Origin: a virus
Virus record (IMG/VR): IMGVR_UViG_3300025809_000142
Coordinates: 1-22,175 of that record
Length of the DNA: 22,175 nucleotides
Direction: 5' to 3' (one strand)
The notes below the pieces were generated by a model. The model was given only the letters and a program-made list of their open reading frames with translations, made no database searches and had not been told where the DNA came from. The translations under genes and the position numbers were made by a program. Numbering within the stretch: the stretch's first letter is position 1; each line of letters starts with the position of its first letter. Below, in pieces: positions 9,303-19,023 of the stretch.

Positions 9303-10205
9303 TCACCTCAACTTGTATGGGTGAAGGAGATCTTTTGCAGCGATCACTGGCTTGAGGGCTTTGATATTACTTCCGACAATCTCGTTCTCCCGGTTCTCCC
9401 AAAGACTGGCTGCAATAAGTAAAATCGCCATTTTGATGGGGGCCGGAACTGCTGGGGAGGCTGTCCCCACGATATGACTCACATTGATGACATCAACCTC
9501 ATTGGCAACATCAACAGGCCACTCTGTTCCCATTGCTGGGTAAATGTGGATTCGACCATTGCGCTTGAGGACTCTGTATTTCTCAGAGGGTAATACGACA
9601 GGCAAAAAATGGCTGTCCATATAAGTTATTGATGTGACAAATTGACTGACGCCACCATCTAAAATAAGTGGCTGCTTTTTGTTTCCATTAGTTTGTGGAA
9701 ACCTATCAAAAAACTGCGTCATCGCCCGAGTGATAAACATTCGCCCGGTGTATTGCTCAGCAAAATTTGTCGCGGCTTCAATCATGGTGATTGCCATGTT
9801 GAGCTCACCTTGATCCCCTGTTGTGTAGACAATATGTTTGAAAAACTCATCCGTCGTGACCGGGAAAGTCGCTGGCGATCCAGATACAACAACTGGGACC
9901 GCGTTGGCTTGAACCCATTCCGTTGTATAGAATTTTAGCTGTTGAGCTTCAAGGTCAAACCACAAATCACCTTCAAGTGCGTCAGTGGGCTCTGTAGCTG
10001 ATACGGTTGTCCCACGGGATTCCTGTTGCAGGGTTGTGATCTGTGCCGCAATTACGAGAGGGTTGTCACTAACTAATGTCGGAGCATTTGTGACGTCTCC
10101 GATGTACAACTTCGCGTCGGCTGAGTTGTAGAACATAGCTCCTGAGAGCAGGGTTGCCGGGACGTGTCCGACGACACCCGACCTGTTGATTTGAACTTGT
10201 GACAT
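9303..10205 (-). CDS. Head-tail connector with an N-terminal fibre-like extension
   Basis: A 300-residue protein in two parts. Residues about 118-300 fit the gp6-like/phiE125 gp8-type connector: VTTDEFFKHIVYTT, the helix AITMIEAATNFAEQYTGR, and the C-terminal PAPIKMAILLIAASLWENRE with LLHPYKLR. About the first 110 residues are unusual. SGAMFYNSADAKLYIGD (21-37) and GDLWFDLEAQQLKFYTTEW (79-97) are motifs met in phage fibre or fibre-attachment regions, not in connectors, which normally have about 180-190 residues. The frame is continuous and the AAAGGAC site precedes ATG 10205, so this looks like a true fusion. The collagen-like fibre gene lies just upstream, suggesting that the extension anchors or resembles fibres at the neck (inference). 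Confidence 0.8.
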   Translation of the reverse strand: MSQVQINRSGVVGHVPATLLSGAMFYNSADAKLYIGDVTNAPTLVSDNPLVIAAQITTLQQESRGTTVSATEPTDALEGDLWFDLEAQQLKFYTTEWVQANAVPVVVSGSPATFPVTTDEFFKHIVYTTGDQGELNMAITMIEAATNFAEQYTGRMFITRAMTQFFDRFPQTNGNKKQPLILDGGVSQFVTSITYMDSHFLPVVLPSEKYRVLKRNGRIHIYPAMGTEWPVDVANEVDVINVSHIVGTASPAVPAPIKMAILLIAASLWENRENEIVGSNIKALKPVIAAKDLLHPYKLR

Positions 10206-10255: not shown

Positions 10256-10480
10256 TCAATTGATCTCTTCGGCCTCAGTGTCATCGACAAGACCTTGATT
10301 GGATGAAAATTGCGGGAGGTCTGTTGCAAAATCCGGGTGTGAGACGTAACTCTCAACGCTGGTGCATCCCAGTTTTTCTTCAATTGCCGTATAGCCAAAC
10401 CTATCGAGCTCAGGTTTTCTGACAAGCTGCCGTTGTTCGATTATTTTATCTTTATGATGCTTAGTCATAACATCTTTCAT
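10256..10480 (-). CDS. Hypothetical 74-residue protein
   Basis: A small ORF with a good GAGG ribosome site before ATG 10480, between the collagen-like gene and the connector gene. The sequence is charged: basic at the start (MTKHHKDKIIEQRQLVRKPE) and acidic at the end (DDTEAEEIN). No domain is recognised. A second ATG at codon 5 (MTKHH) is possible but lies further from the ribosome site. Residues 24-47 (ELDRFGYTAIEEKLG and following) could form a helix pair. It might be a small accessory or chaperone for the fibre or connector, but nothing in the sequence shows this. Confidence 0.6.
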   Translation of the reverse strand: MKDVMTKHHKDKIIEQRQLVRKPELDRFGYTAIEEKLGCTSVESYVSHPDFATDLPQFSSNQGLVDDTEAEEIN

Positions 10481-10512: not shown

Positions 10513-13500
10513 CTAAAGATTTTCTAGTTGAGTTATGCGAGCCTCTAGCTCTTGAACAGTTTTGACGAGTAGCGGTACGAGCTTGCTCTGGTCTACTCCT
10601 TGAAGGAGGTCTTCTGTCCGGGTCACTTGGCTCTCTGTTCCATCTTCAGCCGTTACTGTTTCTGTAACTTCTTCTGTGGCGTCTTTCTCACCTGTAACAG
10701 CTTCTGGAAGATGCTCTTGCAGTTCGTGTGCAATAAAACCATCACTGCGCTGTTGCCCATCAACCCACCTAAAGTTAACAGCGTTTATAGCAAGCAGGCG
10801 TTCTGTTGCATTGCTGATAGGCTGCACATCTTCCTTGAGGCGATAGTCGGAACTGGTTGAGTATTGAGTCGAGTAGTGGCTGCTGGTTATTTTGCCCTTT
10901 ACAACGCCAGAACCATTTTGAAAAGCTATATGCCAATTTTGTGGATGATAGCCTGTTGAGGTGCTGACACTGCCCTTTGATATTATTGTCGCAGTGGCGT
11001 CACTGGTGTTTGAAGTCCCAGGATTTACAACAAGCTGCTGGTTAGCGTGTGTTACAGGGTTAGACGACCCACCGACACCGAACCGCTGGCTGTACCCATC
11101 TGCAACTGCAAAGCCAGCTGACGAACTGCCCATTGATAAATAGAGAGAACCTGCAGTGCTGCCGGGGTCTTTACTTAAGGTTGCGCCGCCAGAACCAATT
11201 CTAAAATTATTTGCAGTAACAGTGCCAGTCACCGTCCCACCTGAAAGCGGTAAAGCATTTAGGGCACCGTCGGCACCAGCGGGACCTTGTGGTCCAGTGT
11301 TACCTGTAGCACCTGTAGCACCTGTAGCACCTGTAGGACCTGTTGGACCCGTAGATCCAAAGTAGCCTCTCGGACCTTGAGGCCCTGTAGAGCCAGTATT
11401 TCCTTGTGGTCCAGTAGCACCATCATCGCCATCAGTTCCTGCTGCGCCTGTAGCACCTTGAGGGCCAGTGTTACCTGTTGGTCCTGCGGGACCTGTGGAT
11501 CCAAAGTAGCCTCTCGGACCTTGAGGCCCTGTAGAGCCAGTAGGACCTTGTGGTCCAGTAGCACCGTCGTCGCCATCAGTTCCTGCTGCGCCTGTAGCAC
11601 CTTGTGATCCAGTAGATCCGGTGTAGCCTCTCGGACCTTGCGGCCCTGTAGAGCCAGTAGGACCTTGTGGTCCAGTAGCACCGTCGTCGCCATTAGTTCC
11701 TGCTGCGCCTGTAGCACCTTGAGGGCCAGTGTTACCTGTAAGCCCTCTTGGACCTGTGGCACCTTGTGGGCCAGTAGCACCATCATCGCCATCAGTTCCT
11801 GCTGCGCCTGTAGCACCTTGAGGGCCAGTGTTACCTGTAAGCCCTCTTGGACCTGTAGCACCTGTAGGACCTGTTGGACCCGTAGATCCAAAGTAGCCTC
11901 TCGGACCTTGTGGACCTGTAGAGCCAGTAGCACCTTGTGGCCCAGTAGCACCATCATCGCCATCAGTTCCCGCAGCGCCTGTAGCACCTTGAGGGCCAGT
12001 GTTACCTGTAAGCCCTCTTGGACCTGTAGCACCTTGTGGTCCAATAGCACCATCGTCGCCATCAGTTCCCGCAGCGCCTGTAGCACCTTGAGGGCCAGTG
12101 TTACCTGTTAGCCCTATTGGACCTGTTGGACCCGTAGATCCAAAGTAACCTCTCGGACCTTGAGGCCCGGTAGAGCCAGTAGGACCTTGTGGTCCAATAG
12201 CACCATCATCGCCATCAGTTCCCGCAGCGCCTGTAGCACCTTGAGGCCCCGTGTTACCTGTACCACCTTGTGGACCGATAGCTCCAGTGTTACCTGTTAG
12301 CCCTATTGGACCTGTACCACCTTGTGGTCCTGTGTAGCCTCTCAGACCTTGTGGGCCAGTAGCACCATCATCACCAGCAGCGCCTGTAGCACCTTGTGGA
12401 CCTTGTGGGCCAGTAGCACCGTCGTCGCCAGCAGCACCTGTGTTGCCTTGTGGACCTTGAGCACCTGTGTTGCCTTGTGGACCAGTAGCACCTGTGTTGC
12501 CTTGTGGTCCAGTAGCACCATCATCACCATCAGCTCCTGCAGCGCCTGTAGTACCTTGTGGACCTTGTGCACCTGTAGAACCAGTGTCGCCTTTCAGACC
12601 TTGTGGTCCAGTAGCACCATCGTTGCCGTCAGTTCCTGCTGCGCCTGTAGCACCTTGGGGACCTTGTGATCCAGTAGCACCGTCGTCGCCAGCAGCGCCA
12701 GTAGCACCTTGAGGGCCTTGTGCGCCCGTAGCACCTTGAGGGCCTTGTGCGCCCGTAGCACCTTGCGAACCTGTAGCACCGTCGTCGCCATCAGCTCCTG
12801 CAGCACCTTGAGGACCTTGAGGACCTTGTGGTCCAGTGTTTCCTTGTAGACCTTGTGCACCGTCGTCGCCATTAGCTCCTGCAGCACCTTGAGGACCTTG
12901 CGGACCTTGTGGTCCAGTGTTTCCTTGTAGACCTTGTGCACCGTCGTCGCCATTAGCTCCTGCAGCACCTTGAGGACCTTGCGGACCTTGTGGTCCAGTG
13001 TTTCCTTGTAGACCTTGTGCACCATCGTCGCCATCAGCGCCTGTAGCGCCTTGTGGACCTTGGGGACCTGTAGCGCCATCGTTGCCATCAGATCCTGCAG
13101 CGCCTGTAGCGCCTTGTGGACCTGTAGCGCCATCGTTGCCGTCAGATCCTGCAGCGCCAGTAGCACCTTGTGGACCAATGTTTCCTTGTGGACCTTGTGG
13201 ACCTGTAGCGCCATCGTTGCCATCAGATCCGGCAGCGCCAGTAGCACCTTGTGGACCAATGTTTCCTTGTGGACCTGTAGCACCATCGTTGCCGTCAGAT
13301 CCTGCAGCGCCAGTAGCACCTTGTGGACCAATGTTTCCTTGTGGACCTTGAGCACCATCGTTGCCATCAGCTCCTGTAGCGCCAGTAGCACCTTGTGGAC
13401 CAATGTTTCCTTGTGGACCTTGAGCACCATCGTTGCCATCAGCTCCTGTAGCGCCTTGTGGTCCAGTGTTTCCTTGTAGACCTTGAGCACCATCGTCGCC

Positions 13501-14271
13501 ATCAGCTCCTGCAGCACCTTGTGGTCCTTGTGGTCCTTGTGGTCCAGTGTTTCCTTGTGGACCTTGAGCACCATCGTCGCCAGCAGCTCCTGTAGCGCCT
13601 TGTGGTCCAGTGTTTCCTTGTAGACCTTGTGCACCGTCGTCGCCATTAGCGCCCGCTGCGCCAGCAGCACCTTGTGAGCCTTGTGGACCTTGTGGACCTT
13701 GTAGACCTATAGCGCCATCGTTGCCGTCAGTTCCTGCTGTGCCCATAGCACCTTGGGGACCTGTGGCACCTTGTAAACCTTGGGGACCTTGTGTGCCTGT
13801 AGCACCAGCATCACCTTGTGGACCTGTGGCACCTTGTAAACCTTGGGGACCTTGTGTGCCTGTGGCTCCATCATCCCCAGTAACTCCCGCAGCGCCTGTA
13901 GCTCCTTGAGGGCCTTGGCTGCCGGTTTCACCTTGGATGCCTTGAGTACCTTGTGGACCAGCGGCACCTATTTCACCTTGGATGCCTTGAGTACCTTGCG
14001 GGCCTGTTGCGCCTTGAGCGCCATCAGGACCAACAATGGTAGTGATCTCAAAATACTCACCACGAAATAAATCTCCGGCAAGCGGCGCGTTGTTAAATGT
14101 TATTTCACTACCAGAGATACTGAAGTCTGTAATTTCATATTGCACGACTCCACCGATTGATATATCCAAATCTCGTGGGGTTGGGACTAATAGAGGCGCG
14201 CCATTGACTGACAATGTGAAAGTCGTCTGTACGCCATCAAATGACGCAGCAATGCTGTCAAAAAGGGCCAT
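10513..14271 (-). CDS. Giant collagen-like fibre protein with C-terminal peptidase S74 chaperone
   Basis: A 1,252-residue protein. Residues 1-80 form an N-terminal beta domain of the fibre-anchoring type ([17 protein letters not shown] and following). Residues 81-1001 are Gly-X-Y triplets, about 307 in a row with no interruption that I could find, rich in [12 protein letters not shown] and almost lysine-free; this should form a collagen triple helix. A non-collagen region follows at about 1002-1140. The end is an S74 (endosialidase-type) intramolecular chaperone: [12 protein letters not shown] with Ser1141 and Lys1146 as the expected dyad, [16 protein letters not shown], and the final helix [16 protein letters not shown]. 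Family knowledge predicts self-cleavage before Ser1141 after trimer folding, releasing 112 residues. GGAGG precedes ATG 14271. Such fibres are usually tail fibres; here the gene sits in the head region. Confidence 0.92.
11260..14035 (-). repeat. In-frame DNA repeats encoding the collagen triplets
   Basis: The Gly-X-Y region is built from tandem and dispersed units whose lengths are multiples of nine bases. Clear examples are an 81-base unit (27 residues) repeated three times with starts near 12780, 12861 and 12942, and a 99-base unit (33 residues) with copies from 11701 and 11800. Further variant copies occur at about 13080-13440 and 11480-12240. Near-identity of neighbouring copies suggests recent expansion by slippage or recombination. 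Long open frames on both strands here are by-products of the repeat. Confidence 0.9.
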
Positions 14272-14338: not shown

Positions 14339-14515
14339 TTACTGTGCGCTGGCTATACGAGTGAGCACTGCCGAGACATTAGCTACATAGACCGAATAGT
14401 TTGTATTATTCAGACTAGCAGTGAGGAACCCGACTGGAGTAGTTGTAGGTGGCGCACCTGCTTGCGTAGTGCCTAGTTTTAGGTAAGGCAATACTGTTCC
14501 GAGTTTTAAGTGCAT
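14339..14515 (-). CDS. Hypothetical 58-residue protein
   Basis: A small ORF whose ATG (14513-14515) overlaps the TAA stop of the 614-residue gene in a TAATG arrangement, so it is probably translated by coupling. The sequence opens [20 protein letters not shown], containing LKLGT twice. A Pro/Thr-rich linker (APPTTTPVG) follows, then a beta-like stretch ([14 protein letters not shown]). No family is recognised. The coupling to a virion-like gene and the UUCG hairpin directly after it suggest that it ends an operon segment and is a real gene, perhaps a small virion or fibre-assembly component. Confidence 0.65.
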
Positions 14516-16359
14516 TAGACCGCCTCCAACTCAATACTCTCTATACAGATCTTGGCAACATCATAATCTGAGTCGCTCGATCCTGCGTAAATTTGCCCTA
14601 ATTGAAGTATTAGCGTTAGTTGCTGTGCGCCGTGAATTTCGGACGCACTAATTGAGTCGCTGTATACCACAGTACCTGACCCACCAGAACTGGCATTTAT
14701 TGTAAATACATTAAATGGCGATAAATTCCAGTCATCACTGGTACCATTACCATCCAGATACCCTTTGACATTAACAGATCCGACTGTAGTCCCACCTAAC
14801 GTAACCTTTAAACGATAATTTGAGGTAGATGTGATCTCACTGACACCTGTAGGCATAGGTAGGTAAACACGATCGAAACCAGCGTACTGGTGAGGCATAA
14901 GGTGATAGACTAATTTGCCACCATACTCCGTAGAGTTGTACATTAGCATCATATCTTTATCGCGATTCATAACGGGGCAGAATGCTACTTGCCTGCCTGA
15001 GTTTCTATCTACTCCCCAGAACTTGCTTTGCCTAAAACTTTCATTGTAATTATTTGGAGAAGTGACGAAGTGCGTTGTCGTATTTTCCAAAGTAGTACTC
15101 GAAGACTGGTTTAAGTCTCTGAAATAAACATCACCCTTTGATACATCAACCGTGGCACCTAATACTAAGTATTGATTATAGGTACTTATAGTTGATTTAG
15201 TATCTCTATAACTACTGAAATTAGATTCAAATTTAGGTCCAAGCAAAACGGCAGATTTTTGAAAAGCGGGGGTGGTAGCCATATTGACTGAGGAAGTTAC
15301 ATCCATTTCTGTGGGGACTCCACTGCCAGATTTAAATAGGCAGTTCAACCAAAAATCGTCGTAGTACGAGAGATGTACAGTATGAGTATTGTTATGATCA
15401 TAATAGTATGTCCCTAAGTTTTTAAACTTGAAATTGATAGGTCCCGAATCTCCTTGCCTCTCATATTTAAAATAATAGCCCAGCAACAAGTGCTTGATGT
15501 CTCTGTTAACGCCTTGAGTAGCCGCCGTGTCATAATAGGGGGAGTACAGGTAGATGTAGCCTCCAGAGGTAAGACAATTTGCTTTAAACGTGAGGGCTGT
15601 TTTAATATACATTTTGTTAGAGGAGCTAAACGTATTTCGCATATTGATGTCGCGAAGTTCAACAGTCTCTCCGTAAATATACATCCTCATGCTTGAAGTA
15701 TTCATTGAATGTGAGATCGTTAACTCAGGAGCATCTACGGTCATTTTATTACCAAAGATGGCAGACGCTCCAAACCAATTCTCGGTATACCCTGTAGGGT
15801 TTACACGGTGAATAATTGTTTCCCCACCGCGTGTTGTTTCAGAAACCCAGCCTGCCGTTAGCGTCGTTAGCAGAAAGTTTGGACCCTTTAATAGGTCGGC
15901 CTTATTAGGAGTAACTAAATTACTTAGGTAATATTGAGGGTCTAGTTGATATGCCGGTTGAGTCAAATCTGCATACGGAACACCAGTCCTCCAGACTCCG
16001 GCAAAAGCATCTAGAGTGTTGGTGGTGTGCGTGCCCCAATTAACGTATTGCTCATCGCCCTTTATGGTGGTGTACTTTAAAAAGGAATGTTGAGCAGGGG
16101 CAGAGTCGAAGTAAACACCATAGTTTCCATTAACGTAAGTTTTTAAATCTGTTACGCCGCTTATCCAAGCAGGTCCAGTTATCCAAGGATTTGTGGGTAA
16201 GGCTTTTAATCGAATTTCATCACCATTGGAGTATCCGCTTTCTGGTAGGTTGTCTATGCTGTATGGATTAGAATATGATCCAGCCGTGCCTGAACCTGTA
16301 GTTCCGTGAACTCCGCCAGACGGCGATTCAATGTAGGGGTCGCACCAATAAATAGCCAT
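14515..16359 (-). CDS. Large putative virion protein (fibre or decoration; unknown family)
   Basis: A 614-residue protein. The N-terminus (MAIYWCDPYIESPSGGVHGT, then a Gly/Ser/Thr-rich stretch and GDEIRLKALPTNPW near 47-60) resembles the cap of right-handed beta-helix proteins on phage virions. The middle (about 210-290) has successive short strands such as MYIYGETVELRDINM and GGYIYLYSPYY. The last ~140 residues (from about 470) look like a separate beta-sandwich ending AKICIESIELEAV. No catalytic motif or signal peptide is evident. Its start overlaps the previous stop (TAATG, 16357-16361), and its stop overlaps the next start in the same way. It lies in the block between capsid and connector genes. 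A head or neck fibre, glycan-binding or depolymerase role is possible but unproven. Confidence 0.7.
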   Translation of the reverse strand: MAIYWCDPYIESPSGGVHGTTGSGTAGSYSNPYSIDNLPESGYSNGDEIRLKALPTNPWITGPAWISGVTDLKTYVNGNYGVYFDSAPAQHSFLKYTTIKGDEQYVNWGTHTTNTLDAFAGVWRTGVPYADLTQPAYQLDPQYYLSNLVTPNKADLLKGPNFLLTTLTAGWVSETTRGGETIIHRVNPTGYTENWFGASAIFGNKMTVDAPELTISHSMNTSSMRMYIYGETVELRDINMRNTFSSSNKMYIKTALTFKANCLTSGGYIYLYSPYYDTAATQGVNRDIKHLLLGYYFKYERQGDSGPINFKFKNLGTYYYDHNNTHTVHLSYYDDFWLNCLFKSGSGVPTEMDVTSSVNMATTPAFQKSAVLLGPKFESNFSSYRDTKSTISTYNQYLVLGATVDVSKGDVYFRDLNQSSSTTLENTTTHFVTSPNNYNESFRQSKFWGVDRNSGRQVAFCPVMNRDKDMMLMYNSTEYGGKLVYHLMPHQYAGFDRVYLPMPTGVSEITSTSNYRLKVTLGGTTVGSVNVKGYLDGNGTSDDWNLSPFNVFTINASSGGSGTVVYSDSISASEIHGAQQLTLILQLGQIYAGSSDSDYDVAKICIESIELEAV

Positions 16360-16571
16360 TATTTAGTCTCCAATGCGGATAATAAGTTACCAAGTACATC
16401 GGAGTTGAGTTCTTCAAAGGTTCCCCCTAGAGCAAACTGTGCTCGTGGACCACTAGTGTCCACCTCAACATCCTCTACGCTTCCATCGTCTTTCATAACT
16501 TTAAATATTATTGTTTTATCATCAATTTCAACGTATTCGTATTCAGCGATATTTAGGTAAGTCGTGTACAT
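16359..16571 (-). CDS. Hypothetical 70-residue protein
   Basis: ATG at 16571 follows the 56-residue gene by two bases, and that gene's final codons (GGAGGAG) form its ribosome site. The sequence (MYTTYLNIAEYEYVEIDDKT and following) is acidic, with beta strands in the first half and a helical end (EELNSDVLGNLLSALETK). No family is recognised. Its stop overlaps the start of the 614-residue gene, so the two are probably translationally coupled and may function together, for example as an assembly helper and its large partner. Confidence 0.7.
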   Translation of the reverse strand: MYTTYLNIAEYEYVEIDDKTIIFKVMKDDGSVEDVEVDTSGPRAQFALGGTFEELNSDVLGNLLSALETK

Positions 16572-16753: not shown

Positions 16754-17041
16754 CTAGACGTGCATAGCGGCTAGAACTTCTAGACCACTTGTATTAGTTA
16801 CCACGACTCGAAACTCTGGAGACATGACTACTTCCTGTTGCGCATCGGCGTCTGACACAGTGAGTACATCTATCCAGTTGAAGTCGGAGCTGAGTCTTGC
16901 TTGCAACTTGACGGTGTCGCCACTGTTGCAGTTAGTTTGGAAAATTCCTGTACGGTTCCCTCGGGTCTCGAACTGAGTCACATCAGAGTCATAGGACACT
17001 GTGAGGCTTGGAGCCGTGAATAGTTTTAGTGCGTATGACAT
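16754..17041 (-). CDS. Small beta-rich protein, candidate capsid decoration protein
   Basis: A 95-residue protein first in line after the major capsid gene and its hairpin. An AAGGAA site precedes ATG 17041. The sequence alternates strands (FQTNCNSGDTVKLQARLSSD, then WIDVLTVSDAD, then PEFRVVVTNTSGLEVLAAM), consistent with an immunoglobulin-like or small beta-barrel fold. The position directly after the capsid gene is where decoration or head-stabilisation proteins are encoded in many phages (lambda D precedes its capsid gene). The decoration role is inferred from position and size; no family is recognised. Confidence 0.65.
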   Translation of the reverse strand: MSYALKLFTAPSLTVSYDSDVTQFETRGNRTGIFQTNCNSGDTVKLQARLSSDFNWIDVLTVSDADAQQEVVMSPEFRVVVTNTSGLEVLAAMHV

Positions 17042-17114: not shown

Positions 17115-18347
17115 TTAAGCTGCGATTGCAACTACCTTCAGAGCTTCGGTGTTCAATAACATTGAGCCAACACGCTTGCGTGTGTAGAAGCTGATAGCAC
17201 CATGAGCGCTGTATGGGTCGCGAAGCATAGAAACGCCAACACGGTCCACAACCTGATAGCCAGCTGCGAAGTCACCAAACACGATAGGCATGTTGCCAGC
17301 ACCGATTTCGGCCATATCTTCGTTGATCACAATCTCGTATCCGAAAATGCGACCAGCAGCAGCTTCAGTGATGTCACGCTGTAGGAAGTATTCACCGTCG
17401 GTGGTCTTTAGATCGACCAATACGTTGTGAGTAGCGCGGCTCATCATCCACTTGGCGTTGCCAAGATAGCCAGTTTTGGTGTTCAAAACTACTGAGCGCA
17501 GTAAGTTGATCACAGCGTCAGAAGTAGCACCCAAAGAAGACGCCTGTCCTGACTTGATAACCTGATACTTACCAAAGTCACGAGTAGCATCGCCTGCAAC
17601 GTATGCAGCAGAAGTGTCCAGACCATTCAAGATGCCGACAGGCTTGTTGACGCCGTTACCGTTCAAGAATGCAACATTCTCTTGCTCAGAGAATTCACGA
17701 GCAACCTCTCCAGCCAACCACGACTCGACATTGAAGAACGCATCTTCAAGGACGTGCTGATAGGCTTTAGGGCTTGCATATACTTCTCCAAATACTGCGG
17801 AGATCTTGTTGAGCTCTGGTGAGCCAGTGTTCGGGCGAGCACTTGTTTCGCCAACCCAGCCACTTGCTGAGCCGCCAACTGATACTAACTGAGAGTAGTC
17901 AGTAGTTGAGGTGCTAATGCCGCCAACTAGGCCACGGATTGGGCTGCTCTCGTGCTGCAGCTGGATGATGTTTGAAGCAACTTCAGTTGGTAGAGCAAAT
18001 CCACCTTGTGCGTCTACTGAGATTTGTACGTCAGCAGCTTTTGCGCGAAGTCCTTCGACGCCTTTGCGAGCGAAAGTTGCAAGCATATCTTTGTTGTCCA
18101 TTGTGTTGGATTCCTTAATTGAGGAGGTTTTAAGAGCTGGGCGATCGGCTTTTGCTTCGAGCGCCTCAACTTTGTCGTTGAGAGATTTAATCTGAGCATC
18201 GGAGTCGGCCTTGACTTGGTCGAGTGCTTCAGTTGATACCTTTGATTCGATCAAAGCATCAGTTGCCTCGGTCTTTGCTTCCAAAGCATCTGCCACTTGC
18301 TTCAGACTCACATCTTCAGCGATTACGTTTTCGATTTGGTCGGTCAT
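17115..18347 (-). CDS. Major capsid protein, HK97 fold with N-terminal delta domain
   Basis: A 410-residue protein from ATG 18347, chosen over an in-frame ATG at 18359 because the latter has no ribosome site while GGGAA precedes 18347. Residues 1 to about 105 are helical and charged (LKQVADALEAKTEATDALIE and ALDQVKADSDAQIKSLNDKV), matching the delta/scaffold domain that the prohead protease removes. The mature HK97-type body follows from about 110, with GGFALPTEVASNIIQL at 115-130 and later SGWVGETSARPNT and FLNGNGVNKPVGILNG. It ends with KRVGSMLLNTEALKVVAIAA. It builds the icosahedral shell. The protease gene stops one base upstream. Confidence 0.95.
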   Translation of the reverse strand: MTDQIENVIAEDVSLKQVADALEAKTEATDALIESKVSTEALDQVKADSDAQIKSLNDKVEALEAKADRPALKTSSIKESNTMDNKDMLATFARKGVEGLRAKAADVQISVDAQGGFALPTEVASNIIQLQHESSPIRGLVGGISTSTTDYSQLVSVGGSASGWVGETSARPNTGSPELNKISAVFGEVYASPKAYQHVLEDAFFNVESWLAGEVAREFSEQENVAFLNGNGVNKPVGILNGLDTSAAYVAGDATRDFGKYQVIKSGQASSLGATSDAVINLLRSVVLNTKTGYLGNAKWMMSRATHNVLVDLKTTDGEYFLQRDITEAAAGRIFGYEIVINEDMAEIGAGNMPIVFGDFAAGYQVVDRVGVSMLRDPYSAHGAISFYTRKRVGSMLLNTEALKVVAIAA

Positions 18348-18348
18348 T

Positions 18349-19023
18349 TTATTTCCCATTAATTATTTGTAACATCCGCTTGAGCTCGGCTTGAACCTCG
18401 GCGTCTGTAGATTTTGAGTCAATTTCTGGAGCATCACGCGCCTCGTCTATCCCGGAGAAACCTTTGGCCAGAATGGCCTTGGCATCTTTTCGAGAGACAC
18501 CTGCATCACGCAGGACCTTCTCTAGGGATCGAATGTCGTGGTCCGATTTCACGGCGGTCACGACAGACTCTTGGTTTGCCGGTATTGCTACCAGAGATAT
18601 TTCATGAAGGTCTATTTCATGAAGTAAATTTGCGCCGGATTTCCGGTCGTACTCTTCGCGCACAACTCGGTATCCGATTGACATTGCATCGAGTGCTCCG
18701 TCTTTTAATAGTGCATAGGCCTCATCAGCATCGCGCACGCCTTTGGTCAAACGACCCTCGACATAGAGACCCTTGTCGTCCTCGCGCATCGACGTCCAGA
18801 CCCCGATGGGTCGAGTGGTGTCATGGTGAGCGAGCATTTTGACTTTGGTCCCGGCTGCCTGATGGTTGGCGATGGACTTAATGAATGCGCCGCGCTGGGT
18901 AATGTCCCCGGCACGGTCCTGATGGTCGAACGTGTTTGCATATCCTGAAAACTTTCGCTCGTCCGATTCATCGAGGGCAAATGACTTGTGGTCAAATGCT
19001 ATTACCATTTTTTTAACTGTCAT
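18349..19023 (-). CDS. Prohead protease, HK97 family (peptidase U35/S78-like)
   Basis: A 224-residue protein. The start ATG 19023 (MTVKKMVIAFD) overlaps the portal stop by 11 bases and has AGGAA upstream; a longer in-frame start at 19095 would lie entirely inside the portal gene and lacks support. FSGYANTFDHQDRAGDI (25-41) and KMLAHHDTTRPIGVW (62-76) contain the expected catalytic histidine, and LDAMSIGYRV (111-120) contains the likely catalytic Ser115. SLVAIPAN (143-150) is the typical strand after it. The enzyme cleaves the delta domain from the capsid protein and then itself during head maturation. The remaining C-terminus is helical (RSLEKVLRDAGVSRKDAKAI). Confidence 0.95.
   Translation of the reverse strand: MTVKKMVIAFDHKSFALDESDERKFSGYANTFDHQDRAGDITQRGAFIKSIANHQAAGTKVKMLAHHDTTRPIGVWTSMREDDKGLYVEGRLTKGVRDADEAYALLKDGALDAMSIGYRVVREEYDRKSGANLLHEIDLHEISLVAIPANQESVVTAVKSDHDIRSLEKVLRDAGVSRKDAKAILAKGFSGIDEARDAPEIDSKSTDAEVQAELKRMLQIINGK

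What the first reader, a model, noticed from the sequence alone, without database searches (positions are those of the whole stretch)
10513..14271. Collagen-like fibre with about 307 uninterrupted Gly-X-Y triplets encoded inside the head gene cluster
Seen: residues 81-1001 form Gly-X-Y in one unbroken register (921 residues), flanked by a fibre-type N-terminal domain and an S74 self-cleaving chaperone with Ser1141/Lys1146. Known: S74 domains trimerise and cut themselves from phage tail fibres. Inference: an extended triple helix would measure roughly 250 nm or more at about 0.29 nm per residue, longer than the predicted tail. Its gene lies between capsid and connector genes, not among tail-tip genes, so it may be a head or neck fibre.
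Basis: partly seen in the sequence, partly recalled or inferred. Interest (0 to 1): 0.72.

Follow-up and report, generated by a model that had tools for sequence, protein, structure and literature searches.

The report
Giant collagen fibre, probably neck-anchored
A marine bacterial virus, probably of SAR92-type bacteria, encodes a fibre whose collagen-like shaft would be about 270 nm long, over twice its predicted tail length, and comparison with relatives suggests that the fibre is fixed to the virus neck through an extra domain on the head-tail adaptor.

Summary
The ORF at 10513-14271 (-) encodes 1252 aa with 308 unbroken Gly-X-Y triplets (residues 81-1004) and a Pfam S74 chaperone with the Ser1141/Lys1146 pair. 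An independent contig carries the same fibre with 319 triplets.
New here: the MCP-to-adaptor interval is a swappable cassette. The fibre's N-terminal domain (fibN) is shared by relatives with quite different shafts. The adaptor just downstream (9303-10205) carries a ~112-aa N-terminal extension on an RcGTA-type adaptor core. All 5 extended adaptors with a complete interval have a fibN protein; none of 22 short adaptors does. A close relative with 90-100% identical neighbouring genes but no fibre has the short adaptor. The tail-tip protein stays conserved between the two main fibre cassettes, and long relatives show no other fibre gene there.
I favour a trimeric, self-trimmed, neck-anchored capture fibre (0.5) over a capsid or tail fibre. 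Linkage could explain the co-variation: on the adaptor tree it rests on one change. No complex was modelled and no virion has been seen. Nearest functional analogues are the phiCbK head filament and A-1(L) neck fibres. The parts are known; the combination and length are unusual.

The parts
10513..14271 (-). Collagen-like fibre gene, 1252 aa
14032..14271 (-). fibN: N-terminal domain of the fibre (residues 1-80), proposed virion-attachment domain, shared with relatives that carry other shafts
   Evidence: 51-74% identity across relatives; PHROG tail-fibre family phrog_18673 E 1.6e-12; model pLDDT 65
11260..14031 (-). Collagen shaft: 308 uninterrupted Gly-X-Y triplets (residues 81-1004)
   Evidence: Pfam PF01391
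10852..11259 (-). Distal region between shaft and chaperone (residues 1005-1140), the predicted tip after self-cleavage
   Evidence: position only; no Pfam match of its own
10513..10851 (-). S74 intramolecular chaperone, residues 1141-1252, Ser1141/Lys1146
   Evidence: PF13884 E 9.7e-11; motif
9870..10205 (-). N-terminal extension (about 112 aa) of the head-tail adaptor; two beta units, a helix and a flexible linker; proposed fibre dock
   Evidence: alignments, model, co-occurrence table
9303..9869 (-). Head-tail adaptor core
   Evidence: TIGR02215 E 3.3e-10; RcGTA adaptor E 9e-12 by sequence, E 3.2e-9 by fold
10256..10480 (-). Small gene between fibre and adaptor, an internally deleted form of a 150-174 aa gene in relatives
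14515..16359 (-). 614-aa protein of unknown function in the same interval; also present in fibre-less relatives
   Evidence: no Pfam, PHROG or NCBIfam match
16359..16571 (-). 70-aa gene of the same interval
16754..17041 (-). 95-aa gene next to the capsid gene, possible decoration protein, present with and without fibre
17115..18359 (-). HK97-type major capsid protein, border of the variable interval
   Evidence: PF05065, TIGR01554

Best explanation
The gene makes a trimeric fibre. The C-terminal S74 domain trimerises the chains, drives folding of the distal region and of the collagen triple helix, and then cuts itself off before Ser1141. The mature fibre keeps fibN at its base, a shaft of about 268 nm and a tip made of residues 1005-1140. 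fibN holds it at the head-tail junction, docked on the N-terminal extensions of the 12-copy adaptor ring. It acts as a long flexible capture arm that first tethers the virion to a host surface structure or polysaccharide, after which the conserved J-type tail tip takes over. Shown here: ORF, register, S74 match and residues, modular architecture, adaptor homology, co-variation of fibre and extension. Inferred: trimer, cleavage, triple helix, adaptor copy number (from RcGTA), neck docking, capture role.
For: (1) Every complete MCP-adaptor interval with an extended adaptor has a fibN protein (window plus 4 other records), and 12 further extended-adaptor records show an S74 domain or collagen run upstream; none of 22 short-adaptor records with a complete interval does. 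(2) L030 has the 70-aa gene 100% and the 614-aa gene 90% identical to the window but no fibre and a short adaptor. (3) L034 has only a fibN protein, a free-standing copy of the extension (118 aa) and an extended adaptor between capsid and closure genes. (4) The adaptor core is that of RcGTA, a dodecamer on the outward face of the portal (PMC7296036). (5) fibN keeps 51-74% identity while shafts differ (collagen, mixed, none), as expected of an anchor. (6) The J tail-tip protein stays conserved (last 330 aa 72-82%) between collagen and fibN-200 cassettes, and no other fibre-like gene follows J in three long relatives. (7) Precedent: A-1(L) neck fibres are trimers held by their N-terminal domain on a neck ring (PMC10966104).
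Against: Fibre and adaptor genes are neighbours, so co-inheritance by linkage could give the same pattern; on the adaptor tree extension and fibre each change once. On the MCP tree fibre presence changes three times, but only one change is forced by well-supported branches. No interface was modelled. fibN-like domains also occur in baseplate-wedge and other structural proteins of cyanophages, so the domain does not fix a location. The fibN model is of low confidence and its fold matches are not significant. J of the fibN-501 type (L071) has a divergent C-terminus.
Confidence: 0.5

Rival explanations
1. Capsid (head) fibre: the fibre is anchored on the capsid shell, perhaps through the 95-, 70- or 614-aa proteins encoded between it and the capsid gene, like the RcGTA head spikes or the phiCbK head filament.
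For: Gene order MCP, 95 aa, 70 aa, 614 aa, fibre; in L034 and in the L017/L020/L145 group a fibN protein directly follows the MCP; RcGTA, whose adaptor is homologous, carries head spikes (PMC7296036).
Against: The 95-, 70- and 614-aa genes occur with and without the fibre, whereas the adaptor extension tracks it. In the window the fibre gene lies next to the adaptor side, not the MCP.
Confidence: 0.27
2. Tail fibre whose gene is merely displaced: fibN binds a tail-tip or distal-tail protein and the gene sits among head genes by rearrangement.
For: PHROG relatives are mostly annotated tail fibres; fibN-like domains occur in cyanophage baseplate-wedge proteins; weak profile and fold matches of fibN to distal tail proteins (E 0.035 and worse).
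Against: The position between capsid and adaptor is kept in all relatives that span it. The distal-tail and J genes stay well conserved between the collagen and fibN-200 cassettes, with no matching change at the tail tip.
Confidence: 0.18
3. Sub-hypothesis that cuts across the three locations: the co-variation of fibre and adaptor extension is linkage only, and the extension is a separate neck decoration or itself a small neck appendage. (Its probability is not exclusive of the capsid and tail rivals.)
For: Single change on the adaptor tree; genes only about 300 bp apart; the extension resembles generic fibre-type beta modules; neck collars without fibres exist (PMC10491603).
Against: The free-standing copy of the extension sits beside a fibN protein in L034; the extension persists with very different fibres but is absent from all 22 fibre-less records.
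Confidence: 0.4

Closest known systems
E. coli prophage collagen-like fibres (EPclA-D, PMC3368898)
   Same: Phage fibre with N-terminal phage domain, Gly-X-Y shaft and C-terminal domain; shaft lengths vary by multiples of three
   Different: Their longest collagen domain is 322 aa with one interruption; here 924 aa, uninterrupted. Other end domains (PfN, PfC); no S74 is listed among their domains
phiCbK head filament (PMC3556154)
   Same: Siphophage with a flexible filament of about 200 nm outside the tail, used for first contact
   Different: Sits on the apical head vertex; candidate protein gp76 is a 2799-aa lectin-domain protein and the paper does not mention collagen
Neck fibres of Anabaena phage A-1(L) (PMC10966104)
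   Same: Trimeric fibres about 100 nm long held by an N-terminal domain on a neck ring
   Different: Myophage, bead-chain of three proteins, 15-mer neck ring, no collagen mentioned
S74 (endosialidase-type) self-cleaving fibres
   Same: C-terminal chaperone with Ser/Lys pair five residues apart
   Different: Here placed after a giant collagen shaft, in a head/neck gene cassette
RcGTA adaptor Rcc01688 (6tba, 6toa)
   Same: Adaptor core
   Different: RcGTA adaptor is 197 aa and matches from its first residue, without the N-terminal extension

Membership tests
Collagen-like proteins (PF01391) | Uninterrupted Gly-X-Y repeats over the Pfam cut-off | tested here: met
   450.9 bits against cut-off 27.2; 308 triplets
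Collagen-like proteins (PF01391) | Actual triple helix (CD spectrum, protease resistance) | not testable with these tools
   Needs expressed protein
Peptidase_S74 fibres | S74 domain above cut-off at the C-terminus | tested here: met
   42.2 bits against 22
Peptidase_S74 fibres | Catalytic Ser/Lys five residues apart | tested here: met
   S1141/K1146; same in relatives; reference spacing S578/K583
Peptidase_S74 fibres | Self-cleavage before the serine | not testable with these tools
   Needs virion or recombinant protein mass spectrometry
Neck-attached fibre | Encoded with and dependent on a neck protein | tested here: inconclusive
   Perfect co-occurrence with the adaptor extension but a single change on the adaptor tree
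Neck-attached fibre | Seen at the neck in virions | not testable with these tools
   No micrograph
RcGTA/TIGR02215-type head-tail adaptor | Sequence and fold match of the core | tested here: met
   E 3.3e-10, score 40 against cut-off 39; E 9e-12; Foldseek E 3.2e-9
Tail-tip fibre | Encoded with tail-tip genes | tested here: not met
   Gene lies between capsid and adaptor; no fibre gene follows J in three long relatives

The most novel reading that the evidence does not exclude
Siphophages of this marine group use the 12-copy head-tail adaptor as a socket for interchangeable, self-trimmed fibres of up to about 270 nm, so first contact with the host is made by a neck-borne collagen tether while the tail tip stays constant.
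Probability: 0.4. Interest if true: 0.72.

Novelty: new variant of a known kind. Interest (0 to 1): 0.55.

Why it matters
If the fibre sits on the adaptor, a standard neck protein has become a docking platform for exchangeable adhesins, and variation that normally lies in tail fibres would lie at the neck. A 924-residue uninterrupted collagen, made by a bacterial virus, would also be a useful test of how bacterial-type collagens stay folded. A prophage-type relative in a SAR92-clade genome gives a possible route to experiments.

Tried and rejected
Pfam and PDB searches for the adaptor extension and fibN gave no convincing family; my first impression that the extension is an Mtd-type N-terminal domain was not supported by Pfam. 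Fold search with fibN gave phage fibre anchors at the top but none below E 0.23. phmmer of the S74 region against the PDB found nothing, so S74 rests on Pfam and the motif. DNA search with the non-collagen 3' part found no named phage. Collagen-driven similarities to Klebsiella, Synechococcus and other phages and NCBIfam adhesin names such as SclB reflect the repeat only and were not used. A statistical claim of independent co-evolution was dropped because the adaptor tree shows one change. A literature search for SAR92 phages gave nothing specific.

Full report
OBSERVATION. The ORF at 10513-14271 on the minus strand encodes 1252 aa. Gly occupies every third position without a break for 308 triplets, residues 81-1004. 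Pfam gives Collagen E 1.7e-138 and Peptidase_S74 E 9.7e-11 at residues 1141-1193. Ser1141 and Lys1146 have the five-residue spacing of the known self-cleaving dyad (S578/K583 in MYRF, equivalent to the phage endosialidase pair; PMC3742443), and relatives keep the motif. The register is not an assembly accident: independent contigs carry 319 (L009), at least 246 (L013), 130 (L011) and 128 (L010) triplets. The window and L009 differ in length by exactly 11 triplets.

SIZE. At 0.29 nm per residue the shaft is about 268 nm. That rise agreed with microscopy of a 111-residue phage collagen (PMC3368898). The 694-aa tape measure predicts about 104 nm of tail, by a rule of thumb of mine. The longest collagen domain in the E. 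coli prophage survey is 322 aa with one interruption. Among the few other records I measured, the longest runs were 266 triplets in a viral contig with no other match to this phage (L012), 187 in a 735-kb phage genome (L168) and 131 in Roseobacter phage CRP-114 (L140). This is not a systematic census.

SURROUNDINGS. The window is a 22,175-base IMG/VR record. Running in the - direction it holds TerL, portal, protease, HK97 capsid, 95-, 70- and 614-aa genes, the fibre, a 74-aa gene, adaptor, closure, terminator, major tail protein, tail assembly chaperone, a tail-completion-like gene, tape measure, distal tail and J genes. A near-identical relative (L144) and two others (L142, L143) show that after J come a small gene, a lysozyme-like gene and, further on, genes that I read as regulator and integrase (these readings by eye, not tested), and no further fibre-like gene. 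A prophage-type region with a 97% identical capsid protein and an 83% identical adaptor extension lies in a SAR92-clade genome. The host of the window phage is therefore probably of that group, by inference.

THE CASSETTE. In relatives with 56-100% identical capsid proteins the stretch between capsid and adaptor changes content. Kinds seen include: (a) 95+70+614 aa plus the long collagen fibre (window, L009, L011); (b) a 200-aa fibN protein, a 207-aa protein, a short collagen protein (57-71 triplets), a 700-990-aa repeat protein and small genes (L017, L019, L020, L024, L145); (c) a 501-aa fibN protein with an F5/8-type C domain (below cut-off) next to a free-standing copy of the adaptor extension (L034); (d) a 95-aa gene, one or two large genes and a fibN protein with a shorter, interrupted or absent collagen part (L028, L032, L037, L038); (e) no fibN, S74 or collagen protein at all (L026, L030, L042, L088). 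fibN is 51-74% identical to the window's across kinds while what follows it differs.

THE ADAPTOR. The adaptor core matches TIGR02215 (40 bits, cut-off 39) and the RcGTA adaptor by sequence (E 9e-12) and by fold (Foldseek E 3.2e-9). In RcGTA this protein is a dodecamer on the outside of the portal (PMC7296036). The window protein has about 112 extra N-terminal residues that the model shows as two beta units and a helix joined to the core by a low-confidence linker at 102-111. The second half resembles motifs of tail-fibre and neck families, weakly.

CO-VARIATION. With profile searches, all five records with a complete capsid-to-adaptor interval and an extended adaptor (window, L020, L024, L034, L145) have fibN; L020 and L024 are near-copies in this stretch. 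Twelve more extended-adaptor records with an incomplete interval show S74 or collagen upstream; 22 records with a short adaptor and a complete interval have none of these (window; Pfam S74 confirmed in L069, L154, L156, L162). Other extended-adaptor records are cut off before any fibre could be seen. Many of the 22 are distant and have very short intervals, so the telling ones are the closer relatives L026, L030, L042, L078 and L088. L030 shares the 70-aa gene at 100% and the 614-aa gene at 90% with the window, yet lacks fibre and extension. The adaptor tree puts all extended adaptors on one side of one branch (support 93/94), so the association is a single event there. On the MCP tree fibre presence changes three times in the best tree, with only one change forced by strong branches. 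The fibre and the adaptor type therefore seem to travel together relative to the capsid gene, but linkage of neighbouring genes can explain that as well as contact.

TAIL TIP. J is 72-82% identical in its last 330 residues between collagen and fibN-200 cassettes, so the tail tip does not change with that swap. L071 (fibN-501 type) has a divergent J C-terminus.

MECHANISM. S74 domains trimerise fibres and cut themselves off, from established work on endosialidases. Collagen needs a trimerising domain to set the register, and the C-terminal S74 with the residues before it can supply it. fibN then attaches the trimer. Trimers on a 12-copy ring would need a symmetry change; A-1(L) holds five trimeric fibres on a 15-mer (PMC10966104). 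A flexible tether of this length outside the tail recalls the 200-nm phiCbK head filament, which binds the flagellum before the tail engages (PMC3556154). What the tip of this fibre binds is unknown; carbohydrate-type domains occur in fibN proteins of L034 and L038, both below the Pfam cut-off.

VERDICT. The parts are known families; the shaft length and the combination with an extended adaptor are unusual.

Noticed in passing
10256-10480: The 74-aa gene between fibre and adaptor is an internally deleted version of a 150-174-aa gene that is intact in L010 and L020.
   Followed up: partly
14515-16359: 614-aa protein with no family match; 90% identical copy in a fibre-less relative (L030), 51% in L026. 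Function unknown.
   Followed up: no
L034 9006-9362: Free-standing copy of the adaptor extension (118 aa) beside the fibN protein, followed by an extended adaptor.
   Followed up: partly
L145 2707-9977: SAR92-clade genome region with a fibN-200 cassette, including a 988-aa low-complexity repeat protein and a 290-aa gene like phrog_26179.
   Followed up: partly
L012 4859: Another viral contig with 266 unbroken Gly-X-Y triplets in a 996-aa protein.
   Followed up: no
L162 2414-3331 and L161 802-1767: A 305-321-aa gene between fibre and extended adaptor, of unknown function; different cassettes have different genes here (for example the 290- and 245-aa pair).
   Followed up: no
10513-14271: A third of the collagen Y positions are Thr (101 of 308); from my own knowledge Thr at Y is glycosylated in some collagens, but I looked for no glycosyltransferase beyond the families searched and found none in the window.
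   Followed up: no
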